From Hemileia vastatrix (taxonomy: Eukaryota; Basidiomycota; Pucciniomycetes; Pucciniales; Zaghouaniaceae), in NCBI GenBank assembly GCA_030280995.1, contig JASXTE010000001.1, forward strand, positions 4,397,001 through 4,461,000: DNA of 64,000 nucleotides, given 5' to 3'. A model generated the notes under the pieces. The model saw only the letters and a list, made by a program, of their open reading frames with translations, ran no database searches and was not told the origin of the DNA. The position numbers and the translations under genes were made by a program. This document shows, one piece after another, positions 1 to 62,488 of the stretch. The number at the start of each line of letters is the position of its first letter. Within the stretch, counting starts at the first letter, position 1.

Positions 1-294
1 GACCAATACGTCCCAGATACCTTCGACCACCTCTTTGGTCTTTGGAATCACCCAATAGTTGGTTTTTGTAAAATCATGTTTGATGTCCGCGTTTTTTGAT
101 AAGGCATCACACGTCACCCGTCTCCAGCGGCAAAACTCACATTTCTGGAAAGGACCTTGTGTCTCTGTGCTTTCAAGACAGAAGCACTCCATTTATTTTC
201 AGGCTGTGCATGCTTGAGAATACTGCCGGGTAATGATTCCACCATCTGCTTTGGGGTGTGGAGGCGTGGGAGTTGGGGTAGGACAAGTCAACAT
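1..294 (-). pseudogene. Antisense accessory gene of chromovirus A, copy 1 (partial, cut by window edge)
   Basis: The minus strand reads from an ATG at 294 towards base 1 and matches the accessory gene at 19711-20663 nearly codon for codon. Both start Met-x-Cys-Pro-Thr-Pro, then a KADGG block, then the cysteine block ending C-EF-C-RWRRV-x-C, then a conserved stretch with KTKEVVE and IWDVL. In this copy the CxxC at the start of the cysteine block is broken: a TGA replaces the second Cys and a TAA follows closely. A TATA box (minus strand, 376-383) lies 89 nt upstream and just inside the LTR. The gag-pol of this copy would be on the plus strand left of the window, so the gene is antisense to it. 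C-x2-C-x6-C with basic residues resembles half of a fungal Zn2Cys6 cluster; DNA binding is an inference. Confidence 0.7.
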
Positions 295-393: not shown

Positions 394-1202
394 TGTCACG
401 CGCCATGTGACACTTGAGGCAAAAGCAGCTCATAAAATTAATAATACAGAGGTCTAAATCCATACTCAAAGCACAGAAAGAAATTATACATAGCAACTGT
501 GACTTTCCTTTGTGTACTCACAATTCAACCGCGCTAGTCTAAACTTTAAATCTAAATTAGTCAATCTCTCAATAATGTGTTTTAGTCTTTTCTTCAATAT
601 TCGACACACAGCACAATAGTTAATGTAATAGTCTGCTAAAAGGTTTATTAAGTATCTGTGGGTTATTAAAAGGGGTAGTGAGCATGGATGGGATGGTTAG
701 TGGAGGATTAAAGGGTTAATGGATGTTAATGAGGAGGGTCCAGGTGTAACAGGTGTAATTTTGGTGGTCTGTGGTGTGCGGAATAATGGATGGGTATGAG
801 GTCAATGCAAGGAGGAGTAATGGATATAAAAGGTGTTTCATTCTGGTTCGATATTCCTTTAGAATTAAATTATAAAACATATGTATAGTTAATAGTGGTA
901 AAGCTTCAGGTTAAATCATTATTATTGTATCTTTCCTTATTTTCTCAGTAATCATTTCTAAATCCTAAATCTTTGATTATTGAGTTTTCAACCCTTTGTG
1001 AGATCTTAAAGAATATTAATATTACTTTTAAATTATATTAGAATTCTTGTCAAACATATCTCAAAGAAGTAGCTTTCCTTTGAGTCATCTTTGAATCACT
1101 TCCTCAAACATTTCCTCTGTGATTCGAAGAAGTTTCTAAACTACTCTCCTCATCTCACTTCCAGGAACACCCTCGACCTTGTGCGTAAGTTGTCTGGTGG
1201 CA
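394..1202 (+). mobile_element. 3' LTR of chromovirus A, copy 1 (diverged)
   Basis: The reverse complement aligns along its whole length with the LTRs at 18828-19600 and 26755-27528. It begins TGTCACGCGCC and ends with TGGCA, a mutated TGACA. The long block before the right end (frames with CCTCGACCTTGTGCG) is clearly shared. At 809 bp it is slightly longer than the 773-bp LTRs and carries many substitutions, so it is older. It abuts a truncated element B at 1203, which suggests that A inserted into B or that a rearrangement joined them. An open frame starting at 1091 runs out of the LTR into B; it is a junction artefact and not a gene. Confidence 0.8.
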
Positions 1203-4200
1203 GGAATAATGATTTATCTACAGTAGAAGATTCTGAGATCATAAGAAATCATGAGGACAGCCTAATTATTATTGCCTCTCACAAGGCATTAGTCTTGATT
1301 AATGGAAATAACATTGAGGTTGTTTTAGATTGTGGAGCTGGAGGAAGTGTAGTATATGAAAAGGCACTTGCTTCAGTGGATCAGGATTATAAATCAAAAC
1401 TTATGCTTATCATTTCTGAGAATTGGAGTGTTTATGGCTCTGTTTTTTCCCCTATTGGTAAATACAAAGCCACAGTATTTTTTAAATATAACCATGGTTT
1501 TGTAAGAGCTATGTGTGATTTTGTAGCTATGAAAAATGATAACTTAAGCAGTTGGTTCATTGTTGGAGCTGATATTTTAACCAAGTATGGCATAAAATTG
1601 AATCCTTTAAACCAATTCTTCACAATGGGGATGAATGGGAAGAGAAAATTTAGGATTTCCTCTCCCAGAAAATTATTAACACCAGGATTGAACACATGTC
1701 ATTCTGTAGTTCAATATAAAGGAAGATCTACAAAAGAAATGCCTGCCCTTTTGTCTGAAATTGACAATGCTTCTTTTGGAGAACAACTTTCTGGTGAGAA
1801 TAAAGATTCCATCATTAAATTGATAAAATCTGTTCCTATGGCCTTTTCTCATGGGTTACATGAATTAGGATTGGTAAAAGAAGAAATGAAGCTTTCATTA
1901 TCTTTCACATTAACAGAAATACCACCTAGTTTAAAGAAGAAGCCTTATCCAGCTTCCCCCACAAAGAGATAAGATATTGAAGACAATATCTCTACCCTTT
2001 TAAACATGAAAAGTATTGAAAAGTTAGTTGAAACACCTAATCATTGTGTTATCTCAACTGTATTAACTTCTTATGAGAAAGATAAAGCCAGGTTATGTGG
2101 TGATTATAGAGCATTAAACACTTAATCTGTTGATGATATCTATCCTTTACCCAGAATTAGCTCTATACATGCTACCTTACTAGGTGATAAATATATCAGC
2201 TGTTTTGATGGTAATAAAGGATATCACCAGGCACCTGTTGAGAAGAATTCCCAGAATTTTCTTATGATTGCTACTCATATGGGTATTTATAAGTATGTTA
2301 GAATGCTGTTTGGCCCCAAAAATGCCCCTTCAGTTTTTCAAAAAGTTATGGATAACACGTTCCATCAGAAAATAATTGAAGGATGGGTGATGGTTTACAT
2401 TGATGATATCATCATATTCTCTAAAACATTTGAGGACCATCTTAACCACCTGTGTAAAGTGTTCTAAAATATGGATGAGATAAATATGAAACTTGCCTAG
2501 AAAAAATGCAAATTTGGTTTTCATTCTTTAAATGTGCTTCATCATGTTGTCTCAGGTTTAAAGATATGTGCTGAATAGAACAAAATGGCAGCCATACAAC
2601 AGGTGAAAGCTCCTACTACAGTTAGAGAGCTTCAGAGTTTTTCAGGAATGTGTGGATACTATAGACATTATATTTAAATTATTAGGTGATAGCATTACCC
2701 CTTACCCAATTAACTAGGAAATATGTTTTTTTTTGTCTGGAACAGTGAAAAACAAGGAGCTTTTGACAATATGAAACATTGTTTTATGTCAGAACCAATT
2801 CTTTTGCTGCCTGACTTTAATCAACAGTTTGATTTATACACTGATGCCAGTTTTATTGGTATTGGTGCTGCTCTTTATCAAAAACAAGTTATGAATGATA
2901 AAGTATCAGAATTAGTTATTTTTTATATTTAATGAACCTTGAGAAATAGTGAATTGAAATATGGTTCAACTCAACTTGAGTGTTTAGCAGTAGTGTGGGC
3001 CCTAGAGAAGCTACATTATTACATGTATGACCAGAAATTTGAAATTTTCTATGGCTTCAGTGCAGTTAAATCTCTCTTAAACTTGAAAACCCCTAACAGA
3101 CAAATGTTCAGATGGCAGCTAGCTGTTCAAGAATATGGAGGGAGGATGACAATAATTCAAAGGGTTGGTATTGTTCACTCAAATGTGGATATGTTATCAA
3201 GGTTACCTTTTCCAAATGATGACTTAAATCCTGCATATGTTCATGAAGATGAAATAGTTCACATTCATGGGATATATGTGGTTTATATGAAGGAAGAGCT
3301 ATTACAGATTATTCTGGATTCATATGATAAAGACACTAACTTAAAAAAGTTATGTACTATATTAAATGATCCAAACAATTCTTCAATACAAGCATTAATT
3401 AAAACCCTCCTACCAAAGTACCAGACTTCTTTGGGAAAAAAAAATTTCAATTGATGAAGAGTACCTCTAATATAGAAGAAAGTTGAGTAATGTTATTGTT
3501 ATTCCTCCTTATATGAAAGAGATCATCTTGAAGATTTGTAATGATGACATATTGACTGGACATTTTGATCTTGAGAAAATTATGATAAGAACTAAGAACA
3601 CTTCTTTTTTGATTAATATTCCTGAAGACACAAATTTATATGTTGAATCCTGTGACTCTTGTCAGAAATCAAAAAGATTAACTGGAAAAAGAGCTGGATT
3701 ATTGCAACATATTGAAGCTCCTGATGCATCATGGCAAATAATAAACATTGACTTTGTAACAGGACTGCCCATTGCTGGGAAAGACAGTTATAACTCTTGT
3801 TAGGTTATGGTGGAAAGATTCTCAAAAATGTGTAAATTTATCCCTTCTCACAAGGATGTTTCCACAAAAGAATTAGCCTTCTTGTGGTGGTCTCATATGT
3901 GTAATACTTCTGGTTTTCCAAAGGCTATAATCTCTGATAGAGACCCTAAATTTACTTCAGAGTTTTGGATGTCTCTGATGTATGTTTGTGGTTGTGATCC
4001 AAAGCTTTCTACTGCCCATCATTCCCAGACTTATGGATTAGTTGAGAGAATAATTCAGACTTTAGAGGACATGATAAGAAGGTATCAGGATTTTGGCTTT
4101 GAGTACAAAGACAATGACAGGTTCACTCAAGATTGGGTCACATTACTTCCGGGGTTAGAATATGCTTATAAAAGCACAGTTCATTCTGTTACTCAAAGAA

Positions 4201-7557: not shown

Positions 7558-7560
7558 TAT

Positions 7561-18700: not shown

Positions 18701-18827
18701 CACTATGAATATTTTTTATGCATATTTTTATGCATATTTTTTATGCGTATTTATTCTTCATAGTCATTATGCATACACTTTAGATAGGCATTTCACCTCA
18801 ATTTTTAACATGCAATAAGTATCCACC

Positions 18828-19600
18828 TGTCACCGGACGACCTACGCACAAGGTCGAGGATGTTCCTGCAAGTGAGATGAGGGATTTATAAACTTCTTCG
18901 AAGCACAGAGGAATGATTCGAGGAAATGATTCGAAGGTCACTCGAAGTAATAGCTACGGGTTCGAGGTTCGTTTGAGAAGAAGTATAGACTAGTTTCAAA
19001 GGTAATAGTAATTCTTAAAATCTCACGAAGGGTTGGAAACTCAATAATCAAAGATTTAGGATTTAGAAATGAATTATTGAGAAAATAAAAGAAAGATACA
19101 AATAACAATGATTTAACTTTAAGGATTTACCACTATTAATGTAAATACAATTTTATAATTTAATTCTAAGGAATATCAAACCAAAACCCAACTCCTTTTA
19201 TATCCTTTGTTCCTCCTTGCATTGACCTCCCTTCCATCGCACCATTCCCATTCCATTGACCATTACTAACATACACTTAGACCCTCTTCACTAAATATCC
19301 GTCCATGCTCTATTTACCCCTTTTTAATTAATTAACAAAACTTTAATGAAAAACTACTACTGTACTATTTCGTTGAGCCTAGCGCTGTGCTTCGCTTATT
19401 GAAAAGGACTAAGGTACCCTATTGGGAGATTGACTAATTTAGATTTAGAGTTTAGGCTAGCGCAGTTAAATAGTAAGTACACAAAGGAAAATCGCAGTTG
19501 CTATGGAGAATTGCTTTCTGCGCTTCGAGTATAGATTTAGGACTTGATATTATTGATTTAATGAGTTGATTTCGCCTCGAGTGTCACATGGCGCGTGACA
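18828..19600 (-). repeat. 3' LTR of chromovirus A
   Basis: 773 bp, nearly identical to 26755-27528 with a handful of visible substitutions. The terminus towards the internal region is GTGTCACATGGCGCGTGACA, which is itself nearly palindromic. Confidence 0.93.
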
Positions 19601-19610: not shown

Positions 19611-19618
19611 TATAAAAA
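19611..19618 (+). promoter_or_regulatory. TATA box of the antisense accessory gene in element A
   Basis: TATAAAAA, 11 nt inside the LTR border and exactly 100 nt before the ATG at 19711. It is conserved in copy 1 (376-383, minus strand). It would drive a transcript opposite to the retrotransposon genomic RNA. Function is inferred from motif, spacing and conservation. Confidence 0.55.
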
Positions 19619-19710
19619 TTGCGAACTCCGTTGAGCTTGAGCCATCTTCCCACACTAGTTTCCCTTTTTCTAATAATTTTTTCCCTCACTTCTTAATTAC
19701 TTATTTTATA

Positions 19711-20663
19711 ATGAACTGCCCCACTCCCACACCTACGCCTCCACACCCTAAAGCGGATGGGGGAATGATCACATGACAGTTTTCACAGACTTGCACGGCT
19801 TGTGAAAGCATGGAGTATTTGAGTGTCGAAAGTACGGCGACTCGAGGCCCTCGCCAGAAATGCGAGTTTTGCCGTTGGCGACGAGTGGCGTGCAATGCGT
19901 TGACGAAGAACGCGGAAATTCCAAAAGCGATTTACCAAGACTAAGTTTTGGGTAATTCCGAAAACCAAAGAGGTGGTGGAAGACATTTGGGATGTCTTGA
20001 TCGAAGATGAACAATCGGTGGGGGAAAATGATAAGGAATTAAACAACAAGATCTCAACCTGGGTAACCCAGGCCACGAGTTCGAAGCAAGGTGTCAAGGA
20101 AGAGGTCGACGAGTTGGTGGAGGAGGATGAAGATGAAGTCCCTGTTCAAGGGCGGGCACCCAAGAAACGACGGGTGGTCATCGAGGACGAGGAGGAAGAG
20201 AGAGAGGTAGAGGTCAAAGTGACGCTAAGGTTATTTCTAGAGCCTGACCCCATCTTCGAGGTAAGTTTTATTTGTGTATTTTAAGGATGAAGTTACTGAT
20301 GAGTTTTTGTTTTAGACATCGAATAACCTTGAAGAGCCAATTGCGGAGCCTGCGTCGGTTATACCAACTGAGGCAAACCCTCCGGCCACGGAAGTAATTG
20401 AAGAACCTGAAGACACCCTGGACCAGGTGTGGTCGAAGAAACCTCGTCAAGGTTGACGAGTAAGGTTTGTGGAAGAATTATGTGGGGAGGTCAACACAAT
20501 TATCGACGCGGCTTCCTTCGACGTGGCAGAGGAGCTCTTGGAGATGGGAGAGGTGGTTCCGGTAGGAGAGGAGGAGGTATTTGAGAAATGCAGGAAGGAG
20601 ATAAGGGTAGTTTTGGAGAAAATGAAAAGATTGGTTCGAGAGAAATTAAAAGAAAAGATTTGA
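19711..20663 (+). pseudogene. Antisense accessory gene of chromovirus A (zinc-cluster-like protein)
   Basis: Not a known family to me. One intron (20261-20315, GTAAGT...TTTAG) joins two exons in phase. Protein features: Met-Asn-Cys-Pro then a TPTPTPPHPKADGG segment; a cysteine block with C-TA-C, about 19 residues, then C-EF-C-RWRRVA-C (C-x2-C-x6-C); a WVIPKTKEVVEDIWDVLIED segment; a long acidic region with a basic KKRR patch; and a C-terminal charged helix ending KLKEKI. Breaks in this copy: TGA where copy 1 has CGG (about 19774), a 1-bp frameshift near 19925, and TGA for CGA near 20455. The gene faces pol, convergent and antisense. A DNA-binding regulator or silencing antagonist is conceivable; both are inference. 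Confidence 0.7.
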
Positions 20664-21585: not shown

Positions 21586-24500
21586 TTAAGGTTTTGGTTT
21601 TAAAGGATATTTCAAATGAAAAGATTTTAGGAGTTCAGGAGCGTTAGAAACATTGATGGCTGGTTCCCAGGATGTTTTGTCTGAGTCATTGAGGAAGCCT
21701 TCCCATTCCACGAGGTATTGAAGTTTCCCCTTGCGTATTCTTGAATCAAGGATACGACTTACTTCCCACTCTAGATGATCTTCTACTTTGACCAGTTCCG
21801 GAGTAGGTTGGTTCTTGCCCGGGTATATTTCTCGAGCCAGTTCCAGGAGAGTTACATGGAAAACAGGGTGAATCGCCTGCCATTTAGGAGGTAAATTGAG
21901 TCGAAATGCAGTTTTAGAGACTTCAGAGTTGATTTCGAATGGTCCCCAGCACTTTTCAGCCAGTTTCTTTGATGGTCTTGTTGTTCGAATGTTTCGTGCG
22001 TCGAGCCATACTTTGTCGCCTGGTTTAAAGGAAGGAGAAGATTGTCGATGTTTGTTGGCCTGTTCCTTGTATCTTTGAATCGCTGATTCCAAATTTGTTT
22101 TAAGTTCTTCTTGGAGTCGTGATATAGTTCGAAGATAATGTTCCGCAGGATGATTAGTTCCTACATGGATTGAGTTGAATCGAGGATGTTGTCCATAAAT
22201 GGTTTTGAAGGGAGATTGTTGTGTCGAAGAATGAGTTGAGTTATTATAAGCAAATTCGGCCAATGGTAACCATGTGGTCCAATCGTCTTGTTGGTAACTG
22301 ACATACATTTGAAGATATTGTTCGAGGATTTGGTTAACTCTTTCTGTTTGACCATCGGTTTCAGGGTGATAGGCCATGGAGAGATTCCTCGTGATATTGA
22401 GTTGTCGACACAGTTGGGTCCAGAATGTGGATACAAACAATGAGCCTCTATCTGAAATAATATCATTCGGTAAGCGGTGTTTAGAAAATAAATATTCTAG
22501 AAACAATTCTGACAAATCTTCTGCTGTAGCAGTAGTAGTGGTTTTAATGAAAATAGACATTTTTGAAAATCTATCTACTATTACTAATATAGCATCAAAA
22601 TCATTAGAAATAGGAACTTGAGAAATGAAATCCATTGATAAAGAGTCCCAAGGTTTAGAGGGAATAGGAAGTGGTTGAAGCAACCCATGCTTCCGGTGAC
22701 GGGGAGCCTTATTGCTATTACATTCGTAACAAGCTTTTATATTGGCCTTGATTTCCCTGGTCATACCTGGCCAGAAGAAGTCCCTCGCTATTAACTGGTA
22801 GGTTTTATCAACCCCAAAATGACCAGCTAATGGAGAATCATGTCGACTGTTGAAAATCCATAATTTTATCTCATTGTTGTCGGGTATGACTACTCTACCT
22901 TCGAAGACTAATAGACCTGATTCAATACTAAATCTTTTGGCCCCTTGCTTTGAGAGTATTTTGTCTTTTAACCCTAAACAATAATGGTCCTTCAACTGAG
23001 CTTCGAGGATGTTGGATAGTGGATTTCGAAAAAATTGAATTGTCATCAAATTAAGTTGATGAGTCGTTAACATTGATTTGTTGAAGATTGATTGCACATT
23101 TGCTGGGTTCTTGTCAGCAAATGCGTCCCCCCGCTGTGGGTAAACGTCGTCCCGACGTGACAAGATATCTGGGACAATGCAGTTCTTACCTGGGCGATAG
23201 GAGATAGAGAAAGAAAATTCAGACAAAAATTCAGCCCACCTGGCTTGACGCCTGGTTAACACTTTAGAAGACATGAAGTATTTCAAAGCATTATGATCTG
23301 TTAAAATTTGAAAAGGACTATCTAGGCTGAGAAGAAAAGAACACCATTTTTTAAGACAATGGATAATAGCTAAAAGCTCTTTGTCATGAATTTCATAATT
23401 TAATTCTACAGCTATGAGTTTGCGTGACTCAAAAGCAACAGGATGAAACAACTTTGTTTCAGGATTTAATTGGGAGATGACCCCTGCAATAGCATAATCG
23501 CTTGCATCTGTCTCAACTATTGTCGAGGCAGAAGGATCAAAATGCCGAAGGATTGGGGCTGTGGTGAACGCCGTTTTTAGTGCTTCGAATTCCTTTTGTG
23601 CTGTAGAAGTAAAAACAAAAGGAATATCTTTTCTAAGAAGAGAAGTAAGATTGGAAATAGTTTTAGAGTAATCTTTAATAAATCTTCTATAGAAGTTTGC
23701 AAAACCCAAAAATCCTTGGAGTGATTTAATGTTTTTGGGCTCAGGCCATTCCAGGATTTTCTGGACTTTTTTGTCATCCATGACTAAACCGTCAGTGGAC
23801 AACGTAAAACCCAAAAAATCAATTGATTTGAGGTGGAATTCGCATTTATTATGCTTGGCGTAGAGACCATGACCTCGAAGACGATTTAGGACCTGTCGAA
23901 CATGATGAATATGTTCATCCAGTGTTTTTGAGAATATTAAAATATCATCTAAATAGACGACTACAAATTGTTCAACAACATCTTGAAAGATATCATTAAC
24001 AAAAGTTTGAAAAGTTGAAGGTGCGTTACATAATCCAAAAGGCATAACTAAATATTCAAAACTACCAAATCTAGTGCGCATTGCAGTCAGTGGTTCATGA
24101 CCTTCTGCAATGCGAATCAGATTGTAAGCGCCTCTATGATCAATTTTAGAAAATAAATTAGCACCATTGAAAAGGGTAAGAAGTAATGACATAGGAGGAA
24201 CAGGATATGCATTCTTCTTCGTGACTGTGTTGAGCTTTCTATAGTCAACACACAACCTAAGACTACCGTCCTTCTTTTTTACAAAGAGGACAGGGGAGCC
24301 GGTTGGAGATTTACTGGCTCTGATGAAACCTTTGGCTACATTCTCTGCAATGTAGTCTCGAAGAACTTGAGATTTGTCCTTCGATAAAGAATAGACAGGA
24401 CCTGCCGGAGGTACTGGGCCTATTAACTCTATTTGATGGTCGTAGGGTCGATGAGGTGGTAACTTATTGGCCTTGCGGATTGAGAAAACATCGAGGAAAT

Positions 24501-25482
24501 CGTGGTAGATTTCCGGTAGAGTTGATTTGATGGCTTCAACGTTGATTTGGTCGTCCTCTTCATCTTCGAGAGAATCTGTCGAGGGGATACCTGTATTGAG
24601 AGAGCAGAATTCGATTACTTCGAGGCAATTTAAATCCTCTTCGAGTGAAGTCATCGAGCTAGAAGGGTTAGCCAATTGCTCATTTAAAGAAGGATCAGAT
24701 GCTTGCAAGTCATCTGGCAGAGACTTGTCCTCTAGAAGGACGTTGTCAGGCGGGTTGTTTAACTCCCTATTGACCTGCATTGAAGAATCAGAAATATACA
24801 TAGAGCGTGGGGTGATCAATCCCCTAGTCCGATCAATTTCGGGATTCCAATGCGTTAAAAAGTCATGGCCAAGAATGGTATCGTCCATCCTTGGGGCGTC
24901 CAAGACTGATAATTCCCACTCGAAGGGGGGAAATTTCGGAAAGTTGAAAACACATAAAACTTTCTTACTTACCCAATATTTGGGTTCCTCTGATTCAACC
25001 AAATAGATTGGAGTTCGATCGATATCTGTAAATGTTAGTTGAAGCTTCTCGGCAAAAGATAAACTAACAAAAGAAATTGAAGCTCCAGAGTCTATCACTA
25101 CGCAATATAGGGGGTGTACTTGCTAGCAAGTCCTCAACCTGAACTCAGATGGAACTCAGATGGAACTCAGACTGAACTCATACTGAACCCATACTGAACT
25201 CTACTTGAACACCCACCTAAAACTGTTCTTCTGAGTGGTGCTCATTCCTGATTGTATGGCTCCTTTATCAATAGCTCAATGTGTGTTCAATCTATGGTGA
25301 GTTTGGGTCCAAGGTTGCGGACTTGCTAGCAAGTCCGCCCCCCATATTGTGTGGTGTATAAGACAACTGAAGGGGATATCCTCCTTAAAAAGAATGAATC
25401 TCAAGCGGTTTAAGGCAACTCCAGTCCTTAAGACATGGAGGTTCTGTGCACTGGGAGAGATAAGATAGTTTGCTTTGCACAC
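21586..25482 (-). pseudogene. Pol of chromovirus A (protease, RT, RNase H, integrase, chromodomain), interrupted by a MITE
   Basis: The frame from 25098 to 21586 is open for 1170 codons. Domains: aspartic protease with IDSGAS at the very start; reverse transcriptase with KKKDGSLRLCVDYRKLN and the YLDD site (about residue 381); RNase H with ETDASDYAIAG (about 526); integrase HHCC finger ending CYECN (750-790); core residues in SMDFISQVP, ISDRGSLF and HPETDGQTERVNQ; and a C-terminal chromodomain (EYLVEWEGF-type, about 1110-1165) that in this family guides insertion to marked chromatin. Upstream of the MITE (25096-25356) the same frame continues to about 25482 (FKEDIPFSCLI, then DSGAS), so removing the MITE plus one TAT restores a continuous protease. 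Pol otherwise looks intact, implying a recent insertion. Confidence 0.92.
25096..25356 (+). mobile_element. 261-bp CACTA-like MITE, copy 2, inside the chromovirus A protease
   Basis: Starts CACTACGCAATATAGGGGG and ends with the complement of CACCACACAATATGGGGGG; the target duplication is TAT (25093-25095 and 25357-25359). It has the same length as the copies at 7561 and 42451 and few differences from the latter. It lies directly before the catalytic Asp codon of the protease. Confidence 0.93.
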
Positions 25483-25499
25483 AAGTAAACTATCTACTA

Positions 25500-26683
25500 G
25501 TTTTTTGACTTCGAACTAGTACCTTCTCTTTCCTTCAACTTTACACGGTCTTCCAACTTGTGCTTACCCCACAATACATACATAACCCATTATCTGCTCG
25601 TCTCTTCCTCTCAGCTTCTTTAAGTTCCCCTTTAGGATCCAGTACTTTGCTGATATCGCCTGGGGTTGAGCCTTTTGGTCGAGGTTTATCCTTTCCCTTA
25701 TTGGGTTTGGATTGAGTCGAGGAGGATTGATTTGGTCGTGGGTGTGAAGAAGGTCCCGATTTAAAATTTAGGCCTTGAGATTTGTTGGCATATCGACGAT
25801 GTTGAAGTCGTTCTTGATAAATGCCGTCAAGTTTGAGGATTTGATCCATTAAGTCCGTTAAAGTAGTCATCTTCTGACCGTGAAGATTTAATTGATCTAG
25901 AATCCTCGAAGGAAGTCCTTTCTTGAAATGATACTTAAGGGAAGCATCATTCCAACCTACTCGAGTTTGAAGTGCTCTGAAGTTCAAGATATATTCAGAG
26001 GCTTTACCATTATCACTCATGCGAAGAAAATCAAGTTCAATTTCCGTGTTGTCCGTTTCATTAGGATCCCCAAACAACATAAAAAGTTGGTCTTCGAACT
26101 TTTCCCAATTATTGATAAGTAAGTGGGTTTCTGTCGAAGAAAGCATGAGCAGATAAGGTTCAAACCATCTTGCCGCTTTTCTGGCTAGAAATGAAGAAGC
26201 GTAAACAACCTTTTATCGGTCGCTGTTAAAGGTTTGAGGGTCATTATGGAACAGTAGCTTGCAGGTTTGCAAGAAGGGTCGCAATCTGTCGGGGTGATCT
26301 CCGTCGAATTTGTCAGGAGATTTAATAGAAGGAGTTTTGAACATAGATCCCTCTGAAGACGTTGGATTTGAAAAGGTTTTCATGAAAAGTCTCATGAAAT
26401 CTTCCAGAGAGTTAGATGGTCCAGGTTCTGAGGATAGGCCAGAAGGGTGATTGGCAGGGGCGGATGGTGCCTCGTGCATTGTATCCTCTCCTTCTTCTTC
26501 ATCACTAGAATCCTGAAAATCTTGTGGGATGTCTTCTACAGATTGAACTGAATGTTGCCGTTCCCTAAGGTCGAGTGGTTCCAAAGAGTGAGTGCGAGAA
26601 ACAGACCTTGTGGCTGTTGGCCTGCCTCTAGCGCAAGCTCTAGTAGTAGCGCCCGTAGGAGGAGTGCGTTGAACAGGTGCCAT
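25500..26683 (-). pseudogene. Gag of chromovirus A
   Basis: The capsid/nucleocapsid precursor that packages element RNA. It starts at 26683 (MAPVQRTPPTG). A basic N-terminus is followed by an acidic linker, a retrotransposon gag domain (KFDGDHPDRLRPFLQTCKLLF through VGWNDASLKYHFKKGL), a Lys/Ser-rich tail and the start of a zinc knuckle (CMYCG). It is broken by TAA at 26213 (CAA to TAA type) and by a frameshift in the zinc knuckle near 25560, after which the KHKLED...KLKEREG sequence continues in another frame. Confidence 0.85.
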
Positions 26684-26754: not shown

Positions 26755-27528
26755 TGTCACCGGACAACCTACGCACAAGGTCGAGGATGTTCCTGCAAGT
26801 GAGATGAGGGATTTATAAACTTCTTCGAAGCACAGAGGAATGATTCGAGGAAATGATTCGAAGGTCACTCGAAGTAATAGCTACGGGTTCGAGGTTCGTT
26901 CAAGAAGAATTATAGACTAGTTTCAAAGGTAATAGTAATTCTTAAAATCTCACAAAGGGTTGGAAACTCAATAATCAAAGATTTAGGATTTAGAAATTAA
27001 TTATTGAGAAAATAAAAGAAAGATACAAATAACAATGATTTAACTTTAAGGATTTACCACTATTAATGTAAATACGATTTTATAATTTAATTCTAAGGAA
27101 TATCGAACCAAATACCCAACTCCTTTTATATCCTTTGTTCCTCCTCGCATTGACCTCCCTTCCATCGCACCATTCCCATTCCATTGACCATTACTAACAT
27201 ACACTTAGACCCTCTTCACTAAATATCCATCCATGCTCTATTTACCCCTTTTTAATTAATTAACAAAACTTTAATGAAAAACTACTACTGTACTATTTCG
27301 TTGAGCCTAGCGCTGTGCGTCGCTTATTAAAAAGGACTAAGGTACCCTATTGGGAGATTGACTAATTTAGATTTAGAGTTTAGGCTAGTGCAGTTAAATA
27401 GTAAGTACACAAAAGAAAATCGCAGTTGCTATGGAGAATTGCTTTCTGCGCTTCAAGTATAGATATAGGACTCAATATTATTGATTTAATGAGTTGATTT
27501 CGCCTCGAGTGTCACGTGGCCCGTGACA
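26755..27528 (-). repeat. 5' LTR of chromovirus A
   Basis: 774 bp, the partner of 18828-19600. It contains the promoter for the minus-strand genomic RNA by analogy with the family. No typical tRNA-complementary primer-binding site is obvious just inside it (26740-26754); Tf1/sushi-group chromoviruses self-prime, which could explain this. Confidence 0.92.
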
Positions 27529-32782: not shown

Positions 32783-33869
32783 TGTGGTCTTCCAACATTG
32801 GTGGAGCCCTTTGTTGGTCTATTTGGCATTGTTTTGATATGTCTTAAATGGCATTGTTTAATAATTGAATGTTTTTCTGGAATTATTCGGCAATTGTTAG
32901 GACTGTGGGGATGTGGGTATTACCATTGGAAAGCCCCGGTTTTTCTCTATATTTAATGTCTTGATGACATTTTTCATATTCTAAGTATTTAAGGGATTAT
33001 TTCTCATTTTTTCATTTTAAAAGATAGCTGTTTAATTTTTTTTTTGTGTTTTACAGGCTAACCTTAAGTTGTAGGGTTAAATGCTAAGTACCATTAGAAT
33101 GGGCTAATTTTTCTCTACATTTCATGTCACAATGTTGTTATAGCTTAATTATGTGTTTTAAAGGTTTTAGTAGTCATAGCTTATTTTTCTAAGTATTTTG
33201 GGTATTTTTGGAGGTTTTTGGTGGTTTTCTGGCTTCAGGGTGGTCCGGCCGCCTCAGGCAGGCAGACCCCCCAACTCAGTGCTAGAAGGCTGGGAAGCGT
33301 TTCTAGAGGGGTTTTATGCAATTTGGCACTCAGAAATGCCAAATTTGTTGGTGTACATGGGCTCTTAGATAGTGGTCTGTGTGTATATAGTGAATAAGAC
33401 AGTTTGGGGCAACCTGAATCATCATACAACCATCCAGAGGTGATATCCTTGTTACTCACTCAGTTTTCACTGTTTTCTGGCCACAACTGGCTGTGTTTGT
33501 TGCAAGGTTAGTTCTTCATTTAACTCATCTTTGGCAACTGTTTTCTCTGGTGTAGTCTTCCAAGATATATCAACTATTATTGCTGTCTCTGGTGTGGATT
33601 TGTAACCTACATCAAGTATCATTGCTTTCTCTGGTGTGTACATTGGTCTACATTTCAGTTCTTTGGTTTAGTAGTTTTTCTGGAGACTACTTTCTTGGCT
33701 GATCAGGCAGTCAAGTGTATTGAAAAAGGGGCTTTAAACAACAGGAACCAATTTACTGTAGCAGGTAAATCTTACTTATATTTTTCTAAAGGGACAGGAG
33801 ATTTTCCTTCTGGGTTTTCTCCAACTCCCTTGGTCAAGGCCTATAGCTAGTACTGTAGGATTGTCTACA
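32783..33869 (+). repeat. 5' LTR of element D
   Basis: 1087 bp, starting TGTGGTCTTCCAACATTGG and ending TTGTCTACA. It matches 38475-39546 with scattered differences and a few short indels, so it is older than the B insertion. Confidence 0.9.
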
Positions 33870-33891: not shown

Positions 33892-34108
33892 GAAAATCTT
33901 TTGGCTTTTTGGAATCTCTTTTGATCTAGGCTTCTCTCTTTGGTGGATCTCCTTTGGTGGATTTTGAATTTGGTGCTATATCTCTTTGTGGTTGGTCCAG
34001 GGGTCTTCTTTTCTGTTGGATTTGGTCCCTCCTAGGTCTTTAAGGCTATTTGGGGGGACTTTGGCTATCTTTGGTGGAGATTGGAGGCTGTAACTTGAAT
34101 TTGCTAGG

Positions 34109-35414
34109 ATGGTTAGGATTCAGTCTTGGGATGGTTCAAAGTTTTGGGGGGAGGATGCAAAGGGGTTTTTGGCTAGGTTTGAGGTTTCTTCTGAGATTGA
34201 TGGGGCCTCACTGTTGGACATGGTCAGGCAAGTAATCTTTTTTATTGGTAATAAGAAGGTGGAGAAGGAAGTTTCTGGTATGGCAGGATATATGAGTCAG
34301 GACTGGGGAAAGTTGAAGATTGAAATGGTTAAAAGGTTTCTTACTACTTTCTCAATGGTGGATCTTCATGGGATTGCTAGGAAGTGAGAATTAAAAGGTG
34401 GTGTAACTTCTCTTTCTCAGTATGGGGAATTTATGGAGGAGTTTGGGGAGGCTCTGGATTATCTGGTATATAATGATGTATTACCACATGAAGATGGTGC
34501 CAAGTATGTATTTTGGAGTGCCATGGGTAGGGATGTAAAGGTGGAGGTTATGGAGATTCTTTTCAAGGCTGACTTGATGAAGACTCTTCCAAATGGGGAA
34601 AATAGGATTCCTGCTATGGCTGTTTTAAAGGAGGTTATTTTGGTATATTTGGATCGTATGAAAGATAGGTATGTGGAATCTGGAGAGGAAATACTGTTAG
34701 ACAGAGAGGTTCAAAAGGCTGTGGAGGAAATTTCAGCTTCTGGGGAGGCGATGGAGCCATCAATTTTAGAAGATGGTGATTCTGATGATGCTTGTGAAGC
34801 TTATTTTTCTTTTCCAGAGGATAAAAAAAGGAACTCAGGAATGTGTTTCACTGGATGTCTTGGAGATGTATTCACTAGAGGATAAGTGTATTTCCTTAAT
34901 TTTGGATGAATTGTGTTGGAAGGAGGATTTTTCTGGTCATGATGAAGGATTTTTGGATATTTAGAAGGAATCTGTGGTCGATGTATGGTTGTTGAGGGAT
35001 GATTATTTTTCTTTCTCAAGTTCAGATAATAGCTTATTGGAGGAGGATGTATCAGTTGAATTTTTGGATGGACAGAAAGATTCTGTCTTGGATCTTTTTC
35101 TAGTAGAGGAAGATTATTTTCTGGTGGTTCCCTCAAGATCAGAAGGTCTCTGCTTGGAGGAGGATTTTTATTTTGATGTTATGGATTTTATTCTGGAGGG
35201 TTTTGCAGATTCTAAGCAAGATTCCTATAGGGAAGAGGAAAATTGTGATGTTTTGGATGTCACTGGTATGGAGGTTGATTTTAAAGATGTGGTGAAGGTT
35301 CCAGATGTTTCACAGGGTGGAGAATTTATTGATTCTGGTGATGTGAACTATGGTAGACTCGGTGTATGGAGGAGGATGGAAGATTTGTTTGGAGATCTGA
35401 TTTTGGGATATTAG
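34109..35414 (+). pseudogene. Gag-like gene of element D with acidic tail
   Basis: The first part (34109-34885) resembles the gag of element E, with LLDMVRQVIFFIGNK matching YNMVRQVLFFVTN and a common LKGGV...EFMEEFGEALDYLV / AKGGV...DFDQIVEYLV block. It has one in-frame TGA at 34385-34387. Near 34840 the frame changes, and an acidic tail follows up to 35414 (LLEEDVSVEF, LFLVEEDYF, LCLEEDFYF repeats), with one TAG at 34962. No zinc knuckle or pol domain is seen. It probably supplied capsid protein in cis. Confidence 0.75.
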
Positions 35415-37800: not shown

Positions 37801-38456
37801 TTACAGAGAAGAATCAAGAGATGTAACAAAATGTTCAGCATTGGCTTTGAGCTGGTGAATGAGGTTTTTCCTTTTCTCAAGGTCCTGTGGGTTCCTGGCA
37901 GGAGTGGATTGGAAGTAATTTAGGAAGAGATGCTTATGTTGAGAAGAATGTTGTTAGAAGTTGTCTTTGATGGTGGGCGATGGATTAGGTGGGGGTTCTT
38001 CAATGGTTCCCACATTTTCATCATCACTTTCTGGATAGAAATGAACTGGAAATTGTTCAGATTGAAATTCAGTATGAAGAAGTATTGGACTTACCATAAG
38101 AAGGACCAGGGATGGTAGAGCTAGTGTTTTTAATTGGGTTTGGCACTCTTTTTTGAAGGGTGTAATTTTCTGACCAGTCTGGGGATCAGGATGGATGGTC
38201 TGGATTTTTTGGTGCTGGCAGAAGGTGGATCAGGTTGTGGAGGAGGAGAAGATGTTGAAGAGGACAATGGACCAGGTCTGAAACAAGTCTTCTTCCTAGA
38301 ACGACAGGCATCACAGGAGGTTCTGTAGGGATGAGCTGGTGGTGTGATGGTACAGATGAGATTGTTGTCAATTAAGTATTGGCAAGGACCCATGTCAGTA
38401 GCAGATTTAGAAAGAAAGCTGAACATTGTGGTTGTGATAAAGGAGAATGTGGACAT
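37801..38456 (-). pseudogene. Antisense accessory gene of element D (zinc-cluster-like protein)
   Basis: Starts at 38456 (or at the in-frame Met at 38393), only 19 bp inside the 3' LTR, and runs opposite to gag. Exon 1 contains C-QYLIDNNLI-C, then about 13 residues, then C-DA-C-RSRKKT-C (C-x2-C-x6-C with basic residues), then a Pro/Ser-rich and a Lys/Arg-rich segment. An intron (38094-38031, GTAAGT...CCAG) joins in phase to an acidic exon (SDDENVGTIEEPPP) and a C-terminal charged helix (DLEKRKNLIHQLKANAEHF) ending at 37801. Breaks: a 1-bp shift in an A-run near 38150 and a TAA inside exon 2. The layout mirrors the accessory genes of A and E. Function unknown; DNA binding is an inference. Confidence 0.65.
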
Positions 38457-38474: not shown

Positions 38475-39546
38475 TGTGGTCTTCCAACATTGGAAGAGCC
38501 CTTTGTTGGTCTATATGGTGTTGTTTTGATATGTCTTAAATGGCATTATTTAATAATTGGATGTTTTTCTGGAATTATTTGGCAAATATTGGGACTGCGG
38601 GAATGTGGGTATTACCATTGAATAGCCCCGGTTTTTCTCTATATTTTATGTCTTGATGACATTCTTCATATTCTAAGTATTTAAGGGATTATTTCTCATT
38701 TTTTCATTTTAAAAGATAGCTGTTTAATTTTGTTTTTTGCATTTTACGGGCTAACCTTAAGTCTTAGGTTTAAGTGTTTAGTATTATTAGAATGGGCTAA
38801 TGTTTCTCAATGTTTCCATAGCTTAATTATGTGTTTTAAAGGTTTTAATAGTCATACCTTATTTTTCTAACTCTTTTGGGTATTTTTGGAGGTTTTTGGT
38901 GATTTTCTGGCTTCAGGGTGGTCTGGCCGCCTCAGGCAGGCGGACCACCCACCTCAGTGCTAGAATGCTGGGAAGCGTTTCTAGAGGGTATTTATGCAAT
39001 TTGGCACTCAGAAATGCCAAATTTGTTAGTGTACATGGGCTCTTAGATAGTGGTCTGTGTGTATATAGTGAATAAGACAATCTGGGGCAACCTGAATCAT
39101 CATACAACCATCCAGAGGTGATATCCTTGTTCCTCACTCAGTTTTCACTGTTTTATGGCTACAATTGGCTGTGTTTGTTGCAAGGTTAGTTCTTCATTTA
39201 ACTCATCTTTGGCAACTGTTTTCTCTGGTGTAGTCTTGAAAGATATATCAAGTATTATTGCTGTCTCTGGTTTGGATTTGCAATCTAAATCAAGTATCAT
39301 TGCTTTCTCTTGTGTGTACATTGGTCTACATTTCAGTTCTTTGGTTTAGTACTTTGTCTGGAGACTAATTTCTTGGCTGATCAGGCAGTCAAGTGTATTG
39401 AAAAAGGGGCTTTAAACAAAAGTAACCAATTTACTGTAACAGGTAAATCTCACTTATATTTTTCTAAAGGGACATAGGATTTTCTTTCTGGGTTTTCTCC
39501 AACTCCCTTGGTCAAGGCCTATAGCTAGTACTATAGGATTTTCTCT
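38475..39546 (+). repeat. 3' LTR of element D
   Basis: Partner of 32783-33869. It starts TGTGGTCTTCC after the purine tract and ends in a mutated TTTTCTCT before the AACGG duplication. It is slightly shorter than the 5' LTR because of small deletions. Confidence 0.9.
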
Positions 39547-52863: not shown

Positions 52864-54047
52864 GAGGAGGTGTACATGAAAATCCTGGAAGGGGTCAATG
52901 TTGAACCTCAGGTAGCCTATCCCATTCTCCAACTCAAAAAATCCATCAATGGACTTAAGAAATCTCCATGATGCTGGTCACAAGAAATTAGCTCCTTCTT
53001 CGCCTATGTAGGATTAGTGTAATCAGAAGCTGACCCTTGCCTTTTTCTTTCTCTTGACTCCAATAATTAAATCTTTGTTTACCTTCATGTTGATGATCTG
53101 GCTGTATTTAGCAAAGACATTACTCATTTCAAAGTCACAGTTTCCAAAAGATATAATATGGATTTTTTAGGAAATCTCAACTATTTCATAGGAATGAAAA
53201 ATCACTAGAAATATTCCCAACAAATTGATAAGTTTGTCACAACCCACCTATATTCTTAACTTACTTAGAATCTACAACATGTCTGACTGTAAATCATTGA
53301 CAACTCCCATTCTCCCACATTATCAACTGACCACTGTGAATTCTCAAGAGAAGGAAGACTTTATTAAACTAAATGAAAACTATCAAAGCCCTATCGAGTC
53401 ACTTAATTACTTAGTGCAATTTTCTTGTCCTGACCTGGATTGCTCTGTAGGTCAACTATCCCAACACTTTGAAGAACCTGGTATAAATCACTGGATCTCT
53501 TTCTAACATACCCTCAGGTATCTTTCTGGAACAACAGATCTTAGCCTTACCTCCTTAGCAAGCTCTTCATCTGCATCAACAGGTCACTGTTCTTGGTCTC
53601 ACCCAATGAATTTTGCTGATGCAGATTGGGCAGGATGTCCTAACACCCAACAATCCATGTCAGGTTATGTCTTCATCTTCAATAACGGAGAAATTTTATG
53701 GAAATCTAAGAAGCAAAACACTGTTGCCCTTTCTGCTTCAGAAGCTGAATACCACTCTTGTACTTCAGCTGGTCAAGAAGAAATTTGGCTCAAGAATCTA
53801 TTTGCCTCCCTATCTCTACCTGTCTCTCTACTTTAACAATCTTTGGAGAAAATCAGGGAGCAATTGCACCATCTAAAAATCCTATGTTCCAAGCTCTCAC
53901 AAAACATATTGAGGCTCAATATCATTGGCTCCATTGTAGACTGTTCTAAAGTACTAAGCAGTAGACACAATGCGAGATGGGTTGGTTCTCCTCTTCAATT
54001 TCTAAAATAAAGGGCCTGAAACTCTTTTTTTAAAGACAGCGCAATAA

Positions 54048-54863
54048 TGTGTAACACTAATATTTTATTAGAAAGTTTATAAGATGAGAGATGAGTCTTA
54101 GAGATCAGGAAAACAAGTATTACTATCTGAATATATCTATTCTTAATAAGTGCTAATATCCACAGCTACTCCCTCTTGAAGCGCTCTCTTTGAATATGCC
54201 TTATTATAGCAATAAAATAACTCTAATAATAGTCAATCCTACTAAATCTGTATATTCTCTCTATGTTGCGCTCTTTCACTATGCTATATGAAATACACAC
54301 ACAGACGCACGAATGATAAAAGACTCAGAAAATATCTTTAATTCACTATTCTATTTTACTTATATAAATATATCTCTTCTCCCTCTTTTTTCTATCTCTA
54401 TCAAATAGTCCTCCCTTTTATATTTTTCCAGTACTCAAGACACAGTTCGCTAGTGGATCTTCAGTGCTGGCTCTAGCGCCATATTAGTAAAACAATAGCT
54501 AATCTATTAGTAACTACGTACACTGCTTGTAATAACTATGGCCCCTAAAACATACCCTATGATTACTAACGCTAGTATTAACTTGTTTCACTCATACTCC
54601 ACATATGCGCTTTTGACTATACCTTTGTTATGTTTCAGTGCTACTTTCAGGTTTGACCCATTCTAATTCTGATCCTAGTTGCCTTGACTCTTGGGTAGTT
54701 TTGTGATTGAGTCCCCACTCTCCTTTCTTTAATACTAAGCTCATAGTGTTGACAATTCGCTTAACTAGTTAGCCTCCCTCATTACCTGTTTCAGTAAGTT
54801 ACCCGACTAGCTGTGGTGCAGTATACTATGCACTTGTATGCTACCTGCGAGGCGCGTACCACA
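54048..54863 (-). repeat. Probable 3' LTR of element E
   Basis: Proposed borders: TGTGTAACAC at 54048 and GTACCACA at 54863, so the minus strand starts TGTGGTACGCGCC. The right border is followed by TCTTCCCTCTACTC, a pyrimidine run that is the complement of a polypurine tract. The partner LTR is not in the window, so borders are inferred. Confidence 0.55.
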
Positions 54864-54897: not shown

Positions 54898-54905
54898 ATA
54901 AATAT
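54898..54905 (+). promoter_or_regulatory. TATA-like box of the first antisense accessory gene of E
   Basis: ATAAATAT about 35 nt inside the proposed LTR border and 101 nt before the ATG at 54999. Spacing matches element A (100 nt). Promoter function is inferred. Confidence 0.4.
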
Positions 54906-54998: not shown

Positions 54999-56067
54999 AT
55001 GAATACTAGAAGTACCAATCCTAACACTGAAACTACCGTCAACATTGTGGATGCAATTCGACAGTTCATGCGCACTCAGCCCCGTGCTACTTCACCAACA
55101 ACGCCAGTAACTACACTGATGGGTGGGACAAGATGCACCTGCTGCATTGAAAATGGCATAACTCCTTTTCATTTCTCCAAAACCTGTCGTGGCAATAACT
55201 TCTTCACTGTAAGTCATCTTTACTTTCCTTCCTTGTTGTTACTAACCTTTCTTTTCTTTCCCCCTTTTTTTTTTATATTTTATTTTTATAGTCATGCAAT
55301 TACTGCAAGACATGCAAAAAGAAGTGTAGTTACAATGGGCCTCCCACTGTTGCACGCCTGGACCCTAATGCCTCCACTACTAACATGATGAGTCAAATGA
55401 CCATCAAGCGCCCGACGCCTGCTCCTGTTACCCCACCTGGTAACAAAAAAACCAAGGTTGGTTACCGCGAACCTACACCCAGTAGTGTCGCTTCTGTCTC
55501 AAGATCTCTCTTTTCAGAGGTGAGTACCGTAAGTCTTCTTTTCCTACTTCTTCCTTTCTTAATCCTAGAATTTTCTTCTCTTTTTTTTTTTTTTGTTTCT
55601 TTTAGAATGCACCAGGCACACCTTACGCTGAAACGCCTCCACCTCCAAACATTCCTCTATTCCTTCCAGCCTTGGAAGAAGATCCTTCCTGGGATACCGC
55701 GCCTATTCTAGAGTGTACTCCTTGTATACCCACCCCTGACTGGAAAATTATGCAGCCGGTCTTCAACACCATAATCCTGGACAAATGGCCCATCAAAACT
55801 ACTCCGGACATTGATGATGAAGAGCCCGCCGCGGCTCAAAACTGGGAATTCGCAGAGTGAATTGCCTGCGCTCCATACGATGCAACCATGCATTGTATGA
55901 ACAACATGCTAGCTGCCCTCGAAGGATTCCTCGAGGCGGTCCCGGTTTATAATTGCGCCGAGTATAGCAAATGAAAACAGCTAATAACCATCTTGCAACA
56001 AAACATGCAAGAGGCTGTTTACAACTGGGCTTTCTATGTTCCAATCTTTGAGGATGAAGAATACTAA
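54999..56067 (+). pseudogene. Antisense accessory gene 1 of element E (zinc-cluster-like protein, two introns)
   Basis: Exons 54999-55208, 55292-55519 and 55606 onward; introns begin GTAAGT and GTGAGT, end TATAG and TTTAG, and all phases agree. The protein starts MNTRSTNPNTETT. It carries a cysteine block C-T-CC-IENG...C-RGNNFFT across the first junction into C-NY-C-KTCKKK-C (C-x2-C-x6-C, basic), then a Pro/Thr-rich basic segment, a Pro-rich acidic segment and an aromatic segment (DWKIMQPVFNTIILDKW). The frame reaches TGA at 55858-55860; beyond it the same frame continues to TAA at 56065-56067 with one more TGA, both possibly former TGG codons. The gene is convergent with pol. I know no family for it; a transposon-encoded regulator is a guess. 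Confidence 0.7.
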
Positions 56068-60800: not shown

Positions 60801-61171
60801 CTTCCCCTAATTAATTCCGTATACTCTTCTCTTATGGCTGCTGGTATTGGAAAAGCCTTCTTCTGCCACAGCGCATGAGGTATAACTGGAACAATATAAG
60901 GTTTACCATAAGAGTGTTTTAACAAACCTCTTTCCTCTTCTGAAAAGGCAATAGCATTTTCCCTAAGAACCATAACATGTAACAATAACTTCTTTTCTTC
61001 CTGCGATAACCAGTCCTCTGGTCCAAAATTAACCATCTGAAGCCTTTCCATTGTAATCTTACCAGTAGGCACAAAATCAGGCGGAAGCTTCGTTAAAGGG
61101 GTATCATAAGGATTCCTAGACAGCGCTGGCCTCTGCAAAGGAGGATTGAAAGCAGGCATCGCTACATTCAC
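57891..61171 (-). pseudogene. RT, RNase H and integrase of element E
   Basis: RT (61171-60389) runs from PYIVPVIPHALWQKKAFPIP to ILQDEIPE and FIDNGIIK. The catalytic FIDD is FIDN (one G-to-A change) and is followed by TGA. The frame then resumes with PASDYDGEV. RNase H (about 59990-59580) has LVVDSSVSTVGAVL and ends TMPDSLSRRPL. A long acidic linker follows (SDDEDDSRGSQD). The integrase finger (HENLGHRG...WVKSCPEC, about 58870), core (VARDDLSG, TVDGGAEFAGEF) and C-terminal WKGPYKIRK and GGSYLLEELDGTEW end at a TAA at 57891. At least eight stops interrupt it. No chromodomain is seen. This copy cannot make an active enzyme. Confidence 0.9.
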
Positions 61172-62448: not shown

Positions 62449-62488
62449 ATCCTCTGGATTCGCATACCTAGCGCCAGTCCTTCTTGGC

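What the first reader, a model, noticed from the sequence alone, without database searches (positions are those of the whole stretch)
19611..20663. Antisense, intron-containing zinc-cluster-like gene in LTR retrotransposons A, D and E
Three different LTR elements carry, at the same place (between the last sense coding region and the 3' LTR) and in the same orientation (antisense), a gene with C-x2-C-x6-C and basic residues: CEFCRWRRVAC in A (19711-20663, also 1-294), CDACRSRKKTC in D (37801-38456), CNYCKTCKKKC in E (54999-56067). Intron phases agree, and two A copies share the protein. The pattern resembles half of a fungal Zn2Cys6 cluster. The rest of the proteins is acidic/Pro-rich with a charged C-terminal helix in A and D. 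Antisense ORFs near the 3' LTR are known in plants (I recall maize Grande), but a zinc-cluster version recurring in unrelated fungal elements is not known to me.
Basis: partly seen in the sequence, partly recalled or inferred. Interest (0 to 1): 0.9.

Follow-up and report, generated by a model that had tools for sequence, protein, structure and literature searches.

The report
Antisense zinc-cluster genes in retrotransposons
Several families of mobile DNA in a large fungal-looking genome carry, on their reverse strand, intron-containing genes for a protein that looks like a fungal DNA-binding zinc cluster with its two halves in swapped order, which suggests that these elements carry their own regulator.

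Summary
Elements A, D and E each carry, between their sense genes and 3' LTR, an antisense spliced gene that recurs as an open frame in dispersed copies (complete in 12 of 39 A, 13 of 27 D and 4 of 27 E1 copies examined). The window copies are all broken. In other copies the motif is not half a cluster but six cysteines: CX2CX6CX12CX2CX6C in A and D, CX2CX7CX14CX2CX6C in E1. Pfam Zn_clus matches the halves only in swapped order: first halves (D, E2) fit profile positions 17-37, second halves (D, E1, F1) positions 1-18; A matches nothing. E has a second such gene in tandem (E2), and a further very young family, F, has two. A and E have a conserved TATA box about 100 nt before the ATG. Selection on the frame is clear for A against its relative A2 (differences by codon position 63/42/151), moderate for E1 and D, absent for E2. 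Antisense ORFs at this place are known (Grande, Retand, Boty brtn); my searches showed no zinc-cluster one. Likeliest reading: an element-encoded nuclear DNA-binding regulator. Transcription, zinc and DNA binding are inferred. A's kinship to D/E/F is suggestive only.

The parts
18828..19600 (-). Element A, 3' LTR (element sense is the minus strand)
   Evidence: 97.3% identical to 26754-27528; ends TGTCAC...GTGACA read
26755..27528 (-). Element A, 5' LTR
21586..26683 (-). Element A gag and pol (protease, RT, RNase H, integrase, chromodomain), interrupted by an insert at about 25096-25377
   Evidence: Pfam hits; insert family
19611..19618 (+). TATA box (TATAAAAA) of the A antisense gene, 100 nt before its ATG, between LTR and gene
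   Evidence: 39 of 39 copies and A2
19711..20260 (+). A antisense gene exon 1 (six-Cys cluster; broken in this copy)
   Evidence: 549 nt in 39 of 39 other copies
20261..20315 (+). A antisense gene intron, phase 0
   Evidence: GT-AG in 37 of 39 copies
20316..20663 (+). A antisense gene exon 2 (acidic, Pro-rich, charged C-terminal stretch)
   Evidence: 348 nt in 36 of 39 copies
1..294 (-). A2 antisense gene, 5' part (rest in L041); degraded
   Evidence: 57% protein identity to A, TATAAAAA upstream, third-position excess
394..1203 (+). A2 3' LTR
   Evidence: 94.3% identical to L099:2690-3498
32783..33866 (+). Element D 5' LTR
   Evidence: 91.9% identical to 38475-39544
38475..39544 (+). Element D 3' LTR
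34094..34885 (+). Element D gag-like frames; no pol found in this copy
   Evidence: 35.6% to E gag over 87 aa, E 1e-14; ORF list
38095..38426 (-). D antisense gene exon 1 (six-Cys cluster; Cys2 lost and 1 nt inserted here)
   Evidence: 27 copies aligned
38046..38094 (-). D antisense gene intron, phase 1
   Evidence: GT-AG in 27 of 27 copies
37801..38045 (-). D antisense gene exon 2
   Evidence: 191-codon frame complete in 13 of 27 copies
53933..54836 (-). Element E 3' LTR (5' LTR lies just outside the window at 64001-64904)
   Evidence: 97.3% identical to L098:1001-1904
58527..63787 (-). Element E gag, protease, RT, RNase H, integrase fragments
   Evidence: Pfam hits
54898..54905 (+). TATA-like box (CATAAATA) of E gene 1, 101 nt before its ATG
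   Evidence: ATAAATA in 26 of 28 copies, window included
54999..55208 (+). E antisense gene 1 exon 1 (first half of the cluster)
   Evidence: 210 nt in 26 of 27 copies
55292..55528 (+). E antisense gene 1 exon 2 (basic half of the cluster)
   Evidence: 237 nt in 26 of 27 copies; donor chosen
55606..56067 (+). E antisense gene 1 exon 3
   Evidence: length to 56060 constant in 20 of 27
56495..56939 (+). E antisense gene 2 exon 1 (CX2CX6CX14CX2CX6C)
   Evidence: 445 nt in 19 of 27 copies
56993..57291 (+). E antisense gene 2 exon 2 (intron 56940-56992, phase 1)
   Evidence: 299 nt in 22 of 27 copies

Best explanation
The genes encode element-borne accessory proteins built on a fungal Zn2Cys6-type cluster whose two halves stand in swapped order (the canonical second half first, the basic canonical first half second), followed by a Pro-rich or acidic tail and a charged C-terminal stretch. 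They have their own promoter beside the 3' LTR (TATA box shown for A and E) and are read antisense to gag-pol. Because the genomic RNA is the sense strand, their introns are not removed during reverse transcription, which is how a retrotransposon can carry them. The likeliest role is a nuclear DNA-binding regulator of the element's own expression or silencing, comparable in layout, not in ancestry, to HBZ of HTLV-1. Shown here: gene structure, dispersed open copies, selection on the frame (A/A2, E1, D), conserved TATA boxes, swapped half matches (both halves in D, the second in E1 and F1, the first in E2), kinship of D, E and F. Inferred: transcription, splicing, zinc and DNA binding, nuclear role, target, and the swapped order in A.
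For: Copies: exon lengths constant (A 549 nt in 39/39 and 348 in 36/39) while a neighbouring 77-nt noncoding, repeat-rich stretch has its modal length in 6/39. A versus A2: differences at codon positions 1/2/3 = 63/42/151 in 286 codons, pS 0.71 against pN 0.18. Older (shared) substitutions: A ratio 0.42 against 0.74 and 1.06 in the other frames; E1 0.58 against 0.75 and 0.96 (in two or more copies) and 0.38 against 0.73 and 1.21 (in four or more); D 0.64 against 1.00 and 1.93. TATA boxes in 39 of 39 A copies and 26 of 28 E copies. Pfam Zn_clus: 4 of 10 half-peptides match, all 4 in swapped register; the D window frame's second half also matches positions 1-13 (13.7 bits); F1 reaches 26 bits, cut-off 21. 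Kinship: hhalign D-F1 8.6e-8, D-E1 2.3e-5, D-E2 2.3e-5, E2-F2 1.8e-5. Tandem pairs in E and F.
Against: No RNA data: transcription and splicing are untested. E2 shows no clear selection (shared 0.98, controls 0.75 and 0.92; in four or more copies 0.67, controls 0.49 and 1.11). A and F2 have no Zn_clus match, and apart from F1 all Pfam scores are under the cut-off. A has only a weak link to the rest (hhalign A-F1 6e-4, A-D 0.025, A-E1 0.34; Cys-fixed shuffles A-F1 33/1000, A-E2 135/1000, A-D 224/1000, A-E1 277/1000). LTRs of A, A2, D and E hold fewer CGG/CCG triplets than mononucleotide shuffles and no CGG-n0-20-CCG pair, so a classical Zn2Cys6 site is not evident (general CpG loss may contribute). 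The single-sequence AlphaFold model is poor (pLDDT 53.5). Copies are the closest matches to the window copy, not a random sample.
Confidence: 0.6

Rival explanations
1. The gene products matter less than the antisense RNA: the 3' promoter makes a transcript that pairs with gag-pol RNA or blocks it and sets the element's own level through dsRNA or interference.
For: Antisense promoter-like TATA boxes beside the 3' LTR; the review PMC7264820 (parts 1 and 2 of 3 read) raises this for plant elements.
Against: The amino-acid frame is under selection in A/A2, E1 and D, and exon lengths are kept while most noncoding lengths drift.
Confidence: 0.15
2. The zinc protein acts in retrotransposition itself (nucleic-acid chaperone, nuclear import of the pre-integration complex, or integration targeting) rather than in transcription.
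For: Cys-rich basic module; E's integrase and A's integrase have a zinc-binding domain; nuclear import is one role discussed in PMC7264820.
Against: The half matches are to a DNA-binding transcription-factor domain; an own antisense promoter would be an odd way to make a particle component (inference).
Confidence: 0.2
3. Each element captured a host Zn2Cys6 gene fragment by transduction and carries it as a passenger.
For: The domain is a fungal transcription-factor domain; near-full Zn_clus matches exist elsewhere in this assembly.
Against: Same place and orientation, swapped half order and homology among D, E and F, tandem pairs in E and F, introns kept, and selection; passengers would decay. 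I did not look for a single-copy host relative.
Confidence: 0.05
4. Chance open frames and chance Cys spacing.
For: Short motif; all window copies are broken; no complete six-Cys pattern in one frame of the window.
Against: Basic half 3 in the window against 0.03 in shuffles; 12 of 39 A and 13 of 27 D copies have the whole spliced frame open.
Confidence: 0.01

Closest known systems
Antisense additional ORFs between pol and 3' LTR (aORF-3R): maize Grande gene23, rice RIRE2, Silene Retand ORF4, Phaseolus PvRetro13
   Same: Same place and same antisense orientation; described as present in most copies of a family; Grande gene23 has its own promoter and a nuclear product; about half of the Retand elements also carry tandem repeats between pol and 3' LTR (PMC7264820, parts 1 and 2 of 3 read; PMC11963269, passages)
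   Different: Plants; the domains named are TRP28, SMC and others. A word search of PMC11963269 found no 'zinc' and no 'intron'.
Boty retrotransposon antisense gene brtn (Botrytis cinerea)
   Same: Fungal LTR element with an antisense gene (named in PMC7264820; passages of PMC8365987)
   Different: The original paper (Zhao 2011, Virology) was not read, so brtn's sequence was not compared.
Fungal Zn2Cys6 binuclear cluster (Pfam PF00172)
   Same: Six Cys; spacing CX2CX6CX12CX2CX6C in A, D and F1; half-profile matches in D, E1, E2 and F1
   Different: Halves in swapped order; E1, E2 and F2 have a 14-residue linker and E1 an X7 loop; only F1 passes the Pfam cut-off; A and F2 have no match
HBZ of HTLV-1 and other antisense retroviral genes
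   Same: Antisense gene starting at the 3' LTR, spliced, nuclear regulator (recalled; HBZ's nuclear localisation also in passages of PMC11963269)
   Different: HBZ is a bZIP protein of a retrovirus (recalled); no sequence relation claimed or tested

Membership tests
Antisense aORF of LTR retrotransposons (aORF-3R) | Between pol (or gag) and 3' LTR, antisense to gag-pol | tested here: met
   A, A2 and E with pol, D with gag only
Antisense aORF of LTR retrotransposons (aORF-3R) | Present in most copies of the family | tested here: inconclusive
   Copies were found by searching with the gene itself; element copies lacking it were not counted
Antisense aORF of LTR retrotransposons (aORF-3R) | Transcribed from an own promoter | not testable with these tools
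   Only conserved TATA boxes in A and E
Fungal Zn2Cys6 cluster (PF00172) | Six Cys, CX2CX6CX5-12CX2CX6-8C (consensus recalled) | tested here: met
   A in 37 of 39, D in 17 of 27 copies, F1 in L107. Not met by E1, E2 and F2, whose linker is 14
Fungal Zn2Cys6 cluster (PF00172) | Basic half first, the other half second | tested here: not met
   D and E2 first halves match profile 17-35 and 19-35; E1 and F1 second halves match 1-18 and 1-16; D window second half matches 1-13; A not decided
Fungal Zn2Cys6 cluster (PF00172) | Score over Pfam's curated cut-off (21 bits) | tested here: inconclusive
   F1 26 bits met; D 18.8, E2 15.7, E1 14.3 not met; A and F2 no match
Fungal Zn2Cys6 cluster (PF00172) | Binds two zinc ions and CGG-type DNA sites (recalled) | not testable with these tools
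   LTRs lack paired CGG/CCG sites; no binding data
Ty3/gypsy chromovirus (element A) | Gypsy pol order and C-terminal chromodomain | tested here: met
   RVT_1, RNase H, rve, Chromo 45.1 bits

The most novel reading that the evidence does not exclude
An undescribed superfamily of order-swapped (circularly permuted) Zn2Cys6 proteins that LTR retrotransposons use as antisense-encoded regulators, kept in two deep gypsy lineages, duplicated in tandem in at least two families (E, F), and moved between elements as a module: between A and A2 the zinc gene is near saturation at synonymous sites (pS 0.71) while pol is not (dS 0.27).
Probability: 0.4. Interest if true: 0.8.

Novelty: new variant of a known kind. 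Interest (0 to 1): 0.62.

Why it matters
Antisense genes beside the 3' LTR are known in plants and at least one fungal element, but their function is called unknown in the review I read (PMC7264820). Here a domain is recognisable and predicts a testable activity (zinc-dependent DNA binding). A swapped-order Zn2Cys6 cluster would also bear on how this fungal domain evolved, and tandem pairs and very young copies (family F, 39 other listed copies at 99% identity) point to elements that were recently mobile with these genes on board.

Tried and rejected
Chance ORFs: rejected. 'Half cluster': rejected by copies. LTR CGG sites as target: not supported. Homologues in the 5.8-billion protein set: none for E1, A or F1 at E<=1; that set may hold few eukaryotes, so this says little. 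AlphaFold of the D window frame: too poor to use, no fold search run. Host identity: not established. Among contigs whose length was printed, 18 are of 25-71 Mb; with low GC this resembles a rust fungus with 18 chromosomes (compare Austropuccinia psidii, passages of PMC12774611); inference only. Family F element context: only 2.5 kb read; a polypurine-like tract and LTR-like start shared with D were read by eye, its gag/pol were not seen. The self-comparison of L100-L104 used a faulty text filter and gave nothing used. One search read E gene 2 one base out of frame; one search replaces it. end E1 exon 2 nine bases before the likelier donor (found), so those E1 proteins lack three residues; searches use the later donor. 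In one search E1 exon 3 seemed variable (modal length in 6 of 27) because the stretch ran into an A-run at the stop; to 56060 it is constant in 20 of 27. My note says ATAAATA 27/28; the count is 26 of 28. Literature: searches (listings; capped at the best 10-20 rows where more papers matched) showed no zinc-cluster antisense gene in an LTR element nor a circularly permuted Zn2Cys6; most subscription papers are not in that library. One search was for the karyotype.

Full report
Setting. The window is G000:C26:4397001-4461000 of a 747.6 Mb assembly. GC is low.

Anatomy. Element A: LTRs about 18828-19600 and 26755-27528, 97.3% identical; gag and pol on the minus strand with RT, RNase H, integrase and chromodomain; on the plus strand, between pol and the 3' LTR, a two-exon gene 19711-20663. 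Element A2 (LTR 394-1203, 94.3% identical to its partner in L099) carries the same gene on the minus strand, with pol on the plus strand in L041. Element D: LTRs 32783-33866 and 38475-39544, 91.9%; gag-like frames on the plus strand, no pol seen in the frames listed, gene on the minus strand 38426-37801. Element E: 3' LTR 53933-54836, 5' LTR at 64001-64904 beyond the window, 97.3%; gag and pol pieces on the minus strand; on the plus strand gene E1 (54999-56067, three exons) and a second gene E2 (56495-57291, two exons).

The copies. Searching the assembly with each gene lists 40 matches (a cap), the window's own included; first-look candidates numbered 3634 for A, 3257 for D and 1098 for E. 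I aligned 39 other A copies (all listed), 27 D and 27 E copies (27 of 39 other listed each). Complete spliced frames: A 12 of 39, D 13 of 27, E2 10 of 27, E1 4 of 27. Six-Cys motif: A 37 of 39, D 17 of 27, E2 12 of 27, E1 15 of 27. In the window every copy is broken. Many E1 copies share a stop at codon 21 (10 of 27 end at 20 residues), and several A stops recur, which looks like CGA to TGA decay at CpG (inference).

Coding evidence. Exon lengths are held while most noncoding lengths drift: A exon 1 in 39/39, exon 2 in 36/39, a 77-nt repeat-rich 3' flank in 6/39; E1 exon 1 in 26/27, its first intron in 3/27 and the E1-E2 spacer in 5/27; E1 exon 2 in 26/27, intron 2 in 5/27, exon 3 to 56060 in 20/27. 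Against this, A's intron is as constant as its exons (37/39) and E2's intron (23/27) as constant as its exons (19/27, 22/27). Substitutions shared by two or more copies have a low nonsynonymous-to-synonymous ratio in the proposed frame for A (0.42; other frames 0.74, 1.06; private ones 0.65) and D (0.64; 1.00, 1.93; private 0.78); in E1 0.58 (0.75, 0.96), those in four or more copies 0.38 (0.73, 1.21), private ones 1.20 (25 of 27 copies, the two frame-shifted ones L083 and L085 dropped). E2 gives no clear signal (0.98 against 0.75 and 0.92; four or more 0.67 against 0.49 and 1.11, 24 of 27 copies, those under 80% identity left out). The strongest test is A against A2: 63, 42 and 151 differences at codon positions 1, 2, 3 in 286 codons, pS 0.71 and pN 0.18 in 283. 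Pol of the same pair has dS 0.27 and dN 0.084 in 1186 codons, so the zinc gene pair is older, or mutates faster at silent sites, than the pol pair; module exchange is one explanation.

Promoter and introns. A has TATAAAAA 100 nt before its ATG in 39 of 39 copies and in A2; E has ATAAATA 101 nt before the ATG in 26 of 28, window included. Both lie between the LTR and the gene. For D and F the box was not pinned down. Introns can persist because the element's genomic RNA is the opposite strand (established logic of retrotransposition, not tested).

The cluster. Real copies read: A CX2CX6CX12CX2CX6C, D the same, E1 CX2CX7CX14CX2CX6C, E2 CX2CX6CX14CX2CX6C. A Zn_clus search of the assembly (149 matches listed) showed about a hundred matches that cover profile positions 1-18 only. 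I read four of these: one was an E copy (L108) and three belong to a further family, F (L107) or its near relatives (L106, L109). Gene F1 has CX2CX6CX12CX2CX6C and 39 other listed copies at 99% identity on the large contigs and C19; about 1.5 kb downstream lies a second gene F2 with CX2CX6CX14CX2CX6C. Pfam on whole proteins: F1 26 bits (cut-off 21), D 18.8, E2 15.7, E1 14.3, A and F2 none. Pfam on ten separate halves: four match, and all four in swapped register (D and E2 first halves to positions 17-35 and 19-35; F1 and E1 second halves to 1-16 and 1-18); the other six, both A halves included, match nothing. The D frame of the window adds a second-half match to positions 1-13 (13.7 bits). Hence 'order-swapped Zn2Cys6' is shown on both halves for D, on one half for E1, E2 and F1, and is only inferred for A and F2 from spacing and their basic second half.

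Kinship. hhalign: D-F1 8.6e-8, D-E1 2.3e-5, D-E2 2.3e-5, E2-F2 1.8e-5; D-F2 0.0021, E1-E2 0.0053; A-F1 6e-4, A to the other single families 0.02 to 0.34. With Cys held fixed and other residues shuffled, D-F 0/1000, D-E1 5/1000, D-E2 5/1000, E1-F 13/1000, A-F 33/1000, E2-F 51/1000, E1-E2 122/1000, A-E2 135/1000, A-D 224/1000, A-E1 277/1000 reach the observed score. The F1 and D C-termini also match by eye (YFQ-TPA-N--DL-KR). RTs of A and E are 27% identical over 141 aa, so if A's gene is kin, the gene is old or has moved.

Comparison. Antisense ORFs at this place are a known kind: Grande, RIRE2, Retand, PvRetro13 and, in fungi, Boty brtn (PMC7264820, parts 1 and 2 of 3 read; PMC8365987 and PMC11963269, passages). 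Grande's has its own promoter and a nuclear product, Retand's TRP28 may bind DNA, function unknown. What I read of these names no zinc cluster. I therefore call this a new variant of a known kind.

Verdict. Real gene family on the antisense strand of several LTR elements: high confidence. Swapped Zn2Cys6 in D/E/F: good confidence. DNA-binding regulator of the element: most likely single reading, about 0.6. Odds are as first drafted; the check changed counts, not the balance.

Noticed in passing
window 56495-57291 (+): Second antisense six-Cys gene in element E, in tandem behind the first; two exons, 247 codons, complete in 10 of 27 copies but without a clear selection signal.
   Followed up: yes
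L107:207-551, L110:1463-1999: Family F: two tandem zinc-cluster genes in a very young repeat (39 other listed copies at 99% identity). Its gag/pol and LTRs were not read.
   Followed up: partly
window 19711-20663 against L041:7356-8267: Zinc gene of A and A2 near saturation at silent sites while pol of the same two elements has dS 0.27: possible exchange of the 3' module.
   Followed up: partly
G000 contigs C472, C511, C313, C446, C698 and others: The best and longest Zn_clus matches, several with long open frames, sit largely on other contigs than the big ones, perhaps from another fungus in the assembly.
   Followed up: no
window 7553-7831, 25096-25356, 42441-42719: Near-identical short insert (98-99%) in three places, one of them inside element A between gag and pol.
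   Followed up: no
window 18311-18760 and 15032-17736: 25-nt tandem array of ATGCATATTCAATATGCATATTTTT type, and an array of about 600-nt repeats.
   Followed up: no
window about 36000-37760: Scattered repeats of CCCCCAAGACT-TAAACTGAG type between D's gag and its antisense gene; a related repeat seems to lie between F1 and F2 (L110 frames), like the repeats described between pol and 3' LTR of Retand.
   Followed up: no
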